In this document: piece by piece, positions 4,081 to 44,519 of the stretch | Numbering within the stretch: position 1 is the first letter of the stretch | Layout of the letters: each line of letters opens with the position of its first letter | NCBI GenBank assembly: GCA_022763385.1 | Contig: JALEGQ010000093.1 | Location: 1-44,519, forward strand | DNA: 44,519 bases | Source of the DNA: a bacterium | GTDB taxonomy: Bacteria > Bdellovibrionota_C > UBA2361 > RFPC01 | Direction of reading: 5' to 3' | Position numbers and translations under genes: made by a program | The notes under the pieces: generated by a model | What the model saw: only the letters and a program-made list of their open reading frames with translations | Told to the model about the DNA's origin: nothing | Databases searched by the model: none

Positions 4081-4361
4081 CCCCCCCAGCCCCCAAGAGC
4101 CAAAAATCCTGGCTCCGCCAAGTTTCGGGGGGAAATATAGAAATGCCCCCTAGGGGCAGAAATCTTGGCTCCGCCAAGTTTCGGGGGGAGACATAGTTTC
4201 GGGGGGAAATATAGTTTCGGGGGGAAATATAGAAATGCCCCTTAGGGGCAGAAATCTTGGCTCCGCCAAGTTTCGGGGGGAGAAACAGTTTTTGGGGGGA
4301 GAAACAGCCAGCCCCTCAGGGGCAAAAATCTTGGCTCCGCCAAGTTTTTGGGGGGAGAAAC
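4081..4361. repeat. Array of hairpin repeats with G6 runs, 3' of tRNA-Glu
   Basis: About four irregular units. Each carries the perfect hairpin CTTGGC-TCC-GCCAAG or a near copy (around 4109, 4164, 4257 and 4330), followed by TTTCGGGGGG or TTTTTGGGGGG. Most also have a second hairpin of the form GCCCC-TNA-GGGGC. Seven separate G6 runs occur at 4127, 4183, 4201, 4219, 4275, 4294 and 4350. Read on the minus strand, in the direction of tRNA-Glu transcription, the unit nearest the tRNA is a stem-loop followed by ATTTTT, which looks like an intrinsic terminator. The rest are extra copies. The leftmost copy, near 4081-4110, is degenerate. Confidence 0.8.
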
Positions 4362-4436
4362 TGGCGTCCCCTAGGGGGCTCGAACCCCTGTTACCAGCGT
4401 GAAAGGCCGGTGTCCTAACCACTAGACGAAGGGGAC
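4362..4436 (-). tRNA. tRNA-Glu (UUC)
   Basis: A complete cloverleaf on the minus strand. Acceptor arms GTCCCCT and AGGGGAC pair perfectly. The D arm begins CGTCTAGTGGTTAGGAC. The anticodon stem is CCGGC/GCTGG with loop CTTTCAC, so anticodon TTC at 4401-4403, and the T arm contains GGTTCGAGCCC. Discriminator G and an encoded CCA end are at 4362-4365. It is a single tRNA with no neighbour tRNA in the window. Confidence 0.96.
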
Positions 4437-4483: not shown

Positions 4484-4520
4484 GGGATCGGGGAGAACTT
4501 CTTAATATTGACCAAATTTT

Positions 4521-4564
4521 GGCAGCAAAGCAGTCTACGGGCCAATTTTTATGCAACGCTGGGG
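4521..4564. repeat. Relic end of a dispersed foldback element
   Basis: The stretch AGCAAAGCAGTCTACGGG plus AATTTTTATGCAACGCTGGGG matches the right end of the element at the end of the window (44482-44519), with two differences over the 38 shared bases. It also matches, inverted, the left end at 44338-44360. Only one end is present here. It lies immediately upstream of queG and supplies spurious N-terminal codons to the longest open frame. Confidence 0.75.
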
Positions 4565-4573
4565 TTCATATCC

Positions 4574-36148: not shown

Positions 36149-36628
36149 ATGGCGACGAGAAAACGTACTGCTTCGAAAAAACGAAGCACTTCAAAGAGCG
36201 CTCCAAAGAAGCGTTCTGCCGCTCGTAAGAAGACGACCAAGAGGAAGTCTACTGCGAAGAAGGCAACCAAGAGAAAAGCAGCAAAGAAGACCTCTGCAAA
36301 GAAGTCTTCGGCAAAGAAAGCCACTCGTAGAAAGGCAACCAAGCGGTCGACGGCAAGAAAGTCAACTGCGAAGAAGGCCACGAAGAGAAAGGCGACCAAG
36401 AGAAAAGCAGCAAAGCGGAGCACTGCAAAAAAGAGCACTGCAAAGCGTAAGACGACGAAGCGTAAGACCGCTAAGAAGTCAACTGCGAAGAGAAAGACCA
36501 CAAAACGGTCTTCTACAAAGAAGAGAACCGCCCGCAAGGCGACAAAGAAGCGCTCTACGGCGCGGAAGGCATCTTCTGCCAAGCGAGCTCCAGCTCGTAA
36601 AAAGAAGGCTACTCGACGTAAGCGATAA
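36149..36628 (+). CDS. Histone H1-like lysine/arginine-rich protein
   Basis: 159 residues. All except the initial Met and two Pro are Lys, Arg, Ala, Ser or Thr. The sequence is built of short repeats such as KKSTAK, KATKRKA and TKRKTAKKS with no conserved globular part. This is the composition of bacterial histone H1-like (Hc1/AlgP-type) DNA-binding tails. It probably binds and compacts DNA or RNA unspecifically. The frame is supported by a good RBS (GAGGAG) and by a hairpin including the stop codon. It stands alone between terminators. The lysine-rich N-terminus of RpoD in this window has the same style of repeat. Confidence 0.85.
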   Translation: MATRKRTASKKRSTSKSAPKKRSAARKKTTKRKSTAKKATKRKAAKKTSAKKSSAKKATRRKATKRSTARKSTAKKATKRKATKRKAAKRSTAKKSTAKRKTTKRKTAKKSTAKRKTTKRSSTKKRTARKATKKRSTARKASSAKRAPARKKKATRRKR

Positions 36629-43569: not shown

Positions 43570-44337
43570 GTGTTTGAGGAGCGTTTTTCTTTTTTACTAA
43601 TCGGTGATGGTCATATCAGGACTAATGCTGTCCCCTTTTCGTTCTGGCCTCAAATCGTTATCGCCGTGATGCTCGTTGTTCTGGGACTTCGAGTTTTCGT
43701 TGGCTCCCTATATCCCCCCCGGCGTCTGGTTAGCAATTCTCCCCTATACCCATTTCCGAATAGACTCACTCCTTTTGGGAACCCTTCTCGCCTACTATTA
43801 TGTTTTTTCGTATCAGAAGCTAAAATCTTTTTCCGACAGGTACAGAAGCCTGCTCCTCTTCTTCTCGACCCTAAGCGTCCTACCAGCGTTCCTTTTTTCC
43901 CTAGAGCGTTCACCAAAAATAATGGCACGAAGTGCCGTTGTTTTTGGTGAGGAGCTCTACCCCCGGAGGGAAGGCAAATAGCGAGCCTCTGAAAGGATGC
44001 TGTCAGGCCCGAAGGGGCTGTCTCTATTGAGAAAAAGGGAAAGCCTACGGCTTCCTCTATCCCCTCAGGTGAACGCTCTGTGTTGTCCCGCCGGGGGCTA
44101 TATCGCTCCTCTAAAACAACGGCACTTCGTGCCATTATTTTTGAGGATCGCTATAGATGACGGTCGATATCTGTATACCTTTGGGTTTGCCGGTATCGCC
44201 TTGGGCATGGGCGGTTTTTTGATATTCTTCGTGCTCTCGGAAGGTAAGTGGAAATCCATCCTCCTAAAGCACACCCAGCCACTCGTCTTGCTCGGGAGAT
44301 ACTCGTACTCGATCTATCTCTGGCATATGTCTTTTTA
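43570..44337 (+). pseudogene. Broken acyltransferase-3 (OafA/YrhL-type) membrane protein gene
   Basis: Remnant of a multi-spanning O-acyltransferase. The first part reads QIVIAVMLVVLGLRVFVGSLYPP in one frame. At a run of seven C (about 43714-43720) the frame shifts, and the continuation GVWLAILPYTHFRIDSLLLG with a following hydrophobic region lies in the next frame, as expected for the family (RIDSLLLGTLLA). The gene is then interrupted at 43915-44142 by a palindromic element with a stop at 43979. After it the frame resumes as DGRYLYTFGFAGIALGMGGF and RYSYSIYLWHMSF, which is the family's C-terminal pattern. It ends at a second repeat at 44338. The N-terminal half with the catalytic His is absent. 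One extra C could be a sequencing error; the insertion could not. Confidence 0.85.
43915..44142. mobile_element. 228-bp palindromic MITE-like insertion
   Basis: Terminal inverted repeats of 30 bases match perfectly (43915-43944 and 44113-44142). Each arm has its own inner hairpin GGCAC-GAA-GTGCC. Inside, GAGGAGC...CCCCCGG and its partner continue the symmetry imperfectly, so nearly the whole element folds. It has no transposase gene. No clear target duplication is visible. It is inserted in the acyltransferase gene. Confidence 0.85.
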
Positions 44338-44519
44338 CCCCAGCGTTGCATAAAAATTTGTTCGTAGAGCCACAAGAGTAGTGCAGATTGGGGCTTTGGG
44401 CGAGTTTTTAGGACGAAAGTGTGCTGCACGTACAGTGAGGTCTAAAAACTCGCTCAAAGTTTCAAGATGTGCTGCTATTGTGGTAGCAAAGCAGTCTACG
44501 GGCAAATTTTTATGCAACG
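44338..44519. mobile_element. Second foldback element, reaching the window end
   Basis: The left end CCCCAGCGTTGCATAAAAAT is the inverse of the right end ATTTTTATGCAACG at 44506-44519, so the element is cut by the window edge a few bases before completion. Arms continue to pair inward: CTTTGGGCGAGTTTTTAGG (44394-44412) against CTAAAAACTCGCTCAAAG (44442-44459). Loop about 25 bases. A one-ended relic lies at 4521-4564 in front of queG. It truncates the acyltransferase gene. It carries no transposase. Confidence 0.85.

What the first reader, a model, noticed from the sequence alone, without database searches (positions are those of the whole stretch)
43915..44142. 228-bp palindromic element with perfect 30-bp ends disrupting an acyltransferase
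The arms match exactly and the interior is also largely self-complementary, so it would form a long hairpin. It has no transposase, so it must be moved by another gene, or it acts as a REP-like element. It splits a recognisable gene, so insertion direction and limits can be defined exactly: the gene resumes after it.
Basis: seen in the sequence. Interest (0 to 1): 0.65.

Follow-up and report, generated by a model that had tools for sequence, protein, structure and literature searches.

The report
Composite palindromic MITE in acyltransferase remnant
A 250-bp palindromic mobile DNA element with no gene of its own has jumped into an already broken acyltransferase gene of an uncultured Bdellovibrionota-like bacterium; it belongs to a repeat family of about 20-35 copies in this genome, and its short central sequence recurs between hairpins of different sequence in related genomes.

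Summary
The palindrome is real: two exact 30-bp arms, and the 228-bp stretch folds far better than shuffles (z = -11). Its true bounds are wider. The element is 43904-44153, flanked by TA on both sides. Removing 252 bp (element plus one TA) gives a reading frame that aligns without gaps over 123 residues to an intact homologue in a same-genus genome. The host gene is a remnant: it lacks the region matching residues 1-192, has a frameshift, and is cut again by a second repeat.

The genome holds about 20-35 related copies, mostly 57-75-bp single hairpins, plus one complete 250-bp composite and four half-copies at contig ends. The composite reads hairpin - 22-bp core - inner element - inverted core - hairpin. 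The core (CCCCCGGAGGGAnnnCAAATA) recurs in 7 of 46 genomes of the phylum, in nearly all copies inspected between TA-bounded hairpins of differing sequence. In one relative those hairpin ends resemble the terminal repeats of an intact IS630 transposon.

Best reading: a new family of miniature inverted-repeat elements that insert at TA, probably mobilised by an IS630/Tc1-mariner-type transposase. No such transposase was found in this genome or its family. REP/BIME, Rickettsia-type coding palindrome and structured-RNA readings fit less well.

The parts
43904..44153 (.). The composite miniature element without its flanking TA copies (250 bp)
   Evidence: Terminal motifs GAGCGTTCACC (left) and TAGCGATCCTC (right, reversed); net 252-bp insertion defined by the gap-free alignment of joined flanks to an intact homologue
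43902..43903 (.). TA, left copy of the presumed target duplication (site C-TA-G)
44154..44155 (.). TA, right copy of the presumed target duplication
43901..43959 (+). Left hairpin module M1: CTAGAGCGTTCACC-AAAAATAATGGCACGAAGTGCCGTTGTTTTT-GGTGAGGAGCTCTA; similar units occur alone elsewhere in the genome
43960..43981 (+). 22-bp core CCCCCGGAGGGAAGGCAAATAG, conserved between TA-bounded hairpins in 7 of 46 genomes of the phylum
43979..44080 (+). Inner element M3, with its own diverged A-type (TAGCGAGCCTC) and B-type (GGTGAACGCTC) ends
   Evidence: sequence
44076..44097 (-). Inverted, diverged copy of the core
   Evidence: sequence; counterparts in G001 and G004
44098..44156 (-). Right hairpin module M1' (inverted relative to M1): CTATATCGCTCCTC ... 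GAGGATCGCTATAG
43630..43903 (+). Acyltransferase-3 remnant, 5' part (43630-43695 in another frame; frame of the main match from 43697)
44156..44336 (+). Acyltransferase-3 remnant, resumed after the element, then cut by the second repeat

Best explanation
[quoted passage not shown] Shown: a repeated, dispersed, non-coding palindromic element bounded by TA, which interrupts an acyltransferase remnant at a definable point. Inferred: a transposase acting in trans recognises the short terminal repeats (TAGCGATCCTC / GAGCGTTCACC next to TA), cuts the element out and joins it at a TA, preferably CTAG, duplicating the TA; this is IS630/Tc1-mariner chemistry. Also inferred: because each inserted end carries TA again, further elements can land next to or inside it, so single hairpins, double-hairpin units and the 5-module composite coexist. 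The 22-bp core travels between hairpin ends of different families, probably as part of the minimal mobile unit; its own role is unknown.
For: Copies: 36 matching stretches in the own genome, several at contig ends, and 23 in the same-genus genome G001; 57-75-bp hairpin solos with A and/or B ends. The 250-bp form is complete once (window) with half-copies at four contig ends with different flanks: C182 97%, C131 99%, C129 and C81 96%. TA: joined flanks with one TA retained read F-S-L-D-D-G-R-Y-L in one frame and align with no gap over 123 residues to the intact 400-aa homologue in G001. In 23 composites extracted from several genomes, 22 have TA just outside the right end, which the extraction did not require; the left TA was built into the search pattern. 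CTAG is the commonest site context among own-genome units. Mobiliser: in relative G014, which carries the same hairpin-core-hairpin architecture, the hairpin ends match the 32-bp TIR of an intact IS630 (DDE_3) at 18/26 positions after TATAG, ungapped, shuffle p about 5e-5. The host-gene frame meets a TAG inside the element at 43979.
Against: No DDE_3 transposase was found in the own genome or in G001-G005, and the G014 IS630 protein has no homologue there either. The own ends (A, B) do not resemble the G014 IS630 TIR beyond TATAG. No true empty allele at the same locus was seen, only an intact homologue at 38% identity. Conservation of the core and of per-end hairpins across differing ends is not explained by simple deletion of an IS. 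These are draft metagenome assemblies (82-95% complete) that break at repeats, so absence of the transposase is weak evidence.
Confidence: 0.75

Rival explanations
1. REP/BIME-type repeat: two inverted hairpins with a conserved linker, spread by a RAYT (Y1 HUH) transposase acting on single strands.
For: Hairpin-linker-hairpin layout is BIME-like. Y1_Tnp genes are present in G000 (3), G002-G005 and G014.
Against: None of the 13 Y1_Tnp loci scanned carries the core or a convincing pair of ends next to the gene; only stray TATACTG and weak partial end matches were seen. The one in C111 is bordered by a different inverted repeat, CCCCGGGATGACTATCCC. G001, one of the genomes richest in copies, has no Y1_Tnp match. 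TA on both sides and the gap-free empty-site reading point to a duplication that REPs are not known to make.
Confidence: 0.1
2. Coding palindrome like the Rickettsia palindromic elements, inserted in frame so that the gene stays open.
For: Net insertion is 252 bp = 84 codons and the frame after it is the right one; only one stop lies inside.
Against: That stop (TAG at 43979-43981) lies at the conserved end of the core, the host gene is truncated and frameshifted, and most other composites lie outside long joined frames.
Confidence: 0.03
3. Structured RNA or cis-acting regulatory element (terminator, sRNA) conserved for its RNA fold rather than for mobility.
For: Hairpin stems change on both sides while keeping pairing, and the core is conserved across families (by eye, not counted).
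Against: No Rfam match at E <= 1. RNA folding shows no preferred strand: the core strand is the more stable in only 6 of 22 composites. Stem changes are also expected from inverted-repeat DNA.
Confidence: 0.08
4. Decayed, no longer mobile remnant of an old element family whose transposase has been lost. (This concerns present activity and can be true together with the best explanation.)
For: No matching transposase in six genomes of the family; many diverged partial copies.
Against: 97-99% identity between the window copy and the C182 and C131 half-copies with different flanks suggests recent movement.
Confidence: 0.25

Closest known systems
RUP (repeat unit of pneumococcus)
   Same: About 107-bp non-coding MITE, TA target, TIRs similar to an IS630 (IS630-Spn1) thought to mobilise it (PMC2229807)
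   Different: Different length and ends; no hairpin-core-hairpin composite is described in the passages read; here no IS630 was found in the same genome
Correia/NEMIS elements of Neisseria
   Same: About 107- and 155-bp forms, TA termini, 24-bp TIR, size variants differing by an internal segment (PMC2229807)
   Different: Described there as four related elements with similar sequence; here the core is shared by elements with differing ends
Chunjie MITE of Geobacter uraniireducens
   Same: 235-bp element that disrupts an operon and varies in size and sequence (PMC10969869)
   Different: Sequence and target were not compared here
REP/BIME with RAYT
   Same: Inverted hairpins with linker, multi-copy
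   Different: Here the unit appears to insert as a TIR element at TA and is not linked to the RAYT genes
Rickettsia palindromic elements
   Same: Palindromic insertion into a gene, length a multiple of three
   Different: Contains an in-frame stop; host gene is a remnant

Membership tests
MITE (bacterial, non-autonomous) | Short (<300 bp), no transposase gene | tested here: met
   250 bp, too short for a transposase; the host-gene frame has one TAG inside. One antisense stop-to-stop frame (43650-44150, -) does run through most of it; it was not searched for domains
MITE (bacterial, non-autonomous) | Terminal inverted repeats | tested here: met
   Imperfect 11-bp ends GAGCGTTCACC / TAGCGATCCTC, extended 51-nt arms at 86%; same end types on solos
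MITE (bacterial, non-autonomous) | Many dispersed copies with different flanks | tested here: met
MITE (bacterial, non-autonomous) | Target-site duplication | tested here: met
   TA, inferred from frame continuity and gap-free alignment to an intact homologue; no empty allele at the same locus was available
IS630/Tc1-mariner derivative | TA target, often CTAG (CTAG preference of IS630 is from own knowledge) | tested here: met
IS630/Tc1-mariner derivative | Parental IS with the same ends in the genome | tested here: not met
   No DDE_3 in G000-G005, no homologue of the G014 IS630; drafts are incomplete. For the related G014 composites the ends resemble an intact IS630
REP/BIME | Same repeats flank a RAYT gene | tested here: not met
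REP/BIME | Cleavage by TnpA-REP without target duplication | not testable with these tools
   Needs biochemistry
Rickettsia palindromic element | Open reading frame through the element, fused to a functional gene | tested here: not met
   Stop inside, gene truncated
Known RNA family | Rfam covariance model match | tested here: not met
   0 matches at E <= 1 in seven loci

The most novel reading that the evidence does not exclude
A clade-wide group of TA-inserting elements keeps one 22-bp core (CCCCCGGAGGGAnnnCAAATA) between two end-hairpins while the ends themselves are swapped for those of different transposases. The core would then be a functional module, such as a host-factor or transposition-enhancer site, rather than IS debris.
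Probability: 0.25. Interest if true: 0.55.

Novelty: new variant of a known kind. Interest (0 to 1): 0.35.

Why it matters
MITEs are known in many bacteria, so one more family is ordinary. The unusual part is the modular build: single hairpins, and composites that share a conserved core although their ends differ. If it holds, it gives a natural series for asking which parts of a MITE are needed for mobility and how MITEs change transposase. It also helps explain why these genomes assemble into so many pieces.

Tried and rejected
In-frame coding palindrome: rejected because of the internal stop and the truncated host gene. RAYT/REP: no RAYT gene flanked by the element. RNA: no Rfam match and no strand preference. 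Spread by plasmids or phages: no match in plasmid and phage records; an exact 22-bp sub-pattern gave none in viral contigs. Autonomous copy: a scan of the genome for A/B ends with one mismatch gave 54 sites against 33 for the reversed control; many of the rest are hairpin units, decayed halves or probable chance hits in genes. No transposase-bearing element was seen among the loci read, but only about 130 bp was read at each site. A transposase class other than DDE_3 and Y1 was not searched for.

Full report
Observation. The arms at 43915-43944 and 44113-44142 are exact reverse complements of 30 bp. The 228 bp folds with z = -11.3 against shuffles, and the inverted repeat extends to 51 nt at 86%.

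Bounds and target. Outside the arms lie CTAGAGCGTTCACC on the left (43901) and GAGGATCGCTATAG on the right (to 44156). Other copies in the genome share these flanks up to C-TA / TA-G and then diverge. If 43904-44155 (252 bp: element plus one TA) is left out, the two flanks read in one frame. The result aligns without a gap over 123 residues to an intact 400-aa acyltransferase in the same-genus genome G001, at 38% identity. This is an inferred empty site with a TA duplication at CTAG. No empty allele at the same locus was available.

The host gene. The joined part matches Acyl_transf_3 positions 178-290 (E 1.6e-6, just under the curated cut-off). Nothing in the window from 42001 on convincingly matches residues 1-192 of the G001 protein. 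A piece matching 193-214 lies in another frame (weak, E 0.15, but in the expected place), and the gene is cut again after YSYSIYLWHM by a second repeat. The element therefore sits in a gene remnant; the order of these events is unknown.

Copies. The 228-bp query gives 36 matching stretches in the own genome, some of them the same place on both strands. A search for the two end types finds more, and reading these loci gives roughly 20-35 places (an estimate by eye). Most are single hairpins of 57-75 bp: ends of type A (TATAGCGATCCTC) and/or B (TAGAGCGTTCACC) around a short stem with loop GAA, or around TCAAACACGTGCGAGTGTTTGA, or both. The 250-bp composite is complete in the window, and four contigs end inside copies of it (C182, C131, C129, C81). 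These halves could join into fewer copies, so at least two more probably exist.

Anatomy. The composite is M1 (43901-43959) - core (43960-43981) - M3 (43979-44080) - inverted core (44076-44097) - M1' (44098-44156). M3 has diverged A and B ends of its own. Composites of the same plan, 71-73% identical, occur in G001 and G004.

The core. A search for the 22-bp core found it in 6, then with a wider pattern 7, of 46 genomes of the phylum, with no match for the reversed control pattern. In nearly all copies inspected it lies between two TA-bounded hairpins whose sequences differ between genomes, and also within one genome: G000 has both the window type and a TATACTG type. In 23 composites extracted automatically, 22 are followed by TA. 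The left motif was part of the extraction rule and an inner TA was required on the right, so only the outer right-hand TA is an independent observation. Only a few of the 23 composites have joined flanks that form a stop-free frame with more than 40 codons on both sides, so most appear to lie between genes.

Mobiliser. The relative G014 has composites of the form TATAGTAAGTCCAAAAAAGAATTTCCC ... core ... and an intact IS630-type transposase (346 aa, DDE_3 E 3e-32) with 32-bp TIRs TATAGTAAAGACAGAAAGAAATTTCCG. After TATAG the two agree at 18 of 26 positions without gaps (shuffle p about 5e-5). This ties the architecture to IS630 in one genome. The window family's own ends do not resemble that TIR beyond TATAG, and no DDE_3 gene or homologue was found in G000-G005. 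The IS630 assignment of the window element is therefore an inference, not a membership.

Rivals. Y1/RAYT genes are present but are not flanked by the element. The insertion is a multiple of three but contains a stop. No RNA family matches and folding prefers neither strand. No match was found in plasmid or phage records.

Literature. Bacterial MITEs with TA termini include Correia/NEMIS and RUP, the latter linked to IS630-Spn1 (PMC2229807); a recent review describes Chunjie and others (PMC10969869). One search for repeats of this kind in Bdellovibrio-like bacteria listed no paper on them. This was a limited search and does not prove novelty.

Verdict. A real composite MITE family, ordinary in kind. 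The conserved core shared between elements with different ends is the part worth following.

Noticed in passing
window 44337-44519: A second palindromic repeat, ends ACCCCAGCGTTGCATAAAAATTTG, in about 40 places of the genome and mostly at contig ends. It probably explains much of the fragmentation. The flanks of a copy in C2 suggest a 4-bp target duplication (TTTA).
   Followed up: partly
window 4516-4565: A partial match (93% over 43 nt) to one end of the same second repeat.
   Followed up: no
window 4089-4372: Tandem units with GGGGGG and GGCTCCGCC motifs (TTTCGGGGGGAAATATAG etc.), three to four copies.
   Followed up: no
window 36230-36535: Repetitive lysine/alanine-rich coding stretch (AAGAAG/GCAAAG repeats), histone-like by appearance.
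   Followed up: no
L111 (G000:C111) 640-1752: RAYT-size Y1 transposase gene bordered by inverted CCCCGGGATGACTATCCC repeats, with a short tandem array GGGGACGAATTTTCC beside it.
   Followed up: partly
L118 / G014:C110: Intact IS630-type element with 32-bp TIRs ending at a contig end; several short matches to its protein ends at other contig starts suggest collapsed copies.
   Followed up: partly
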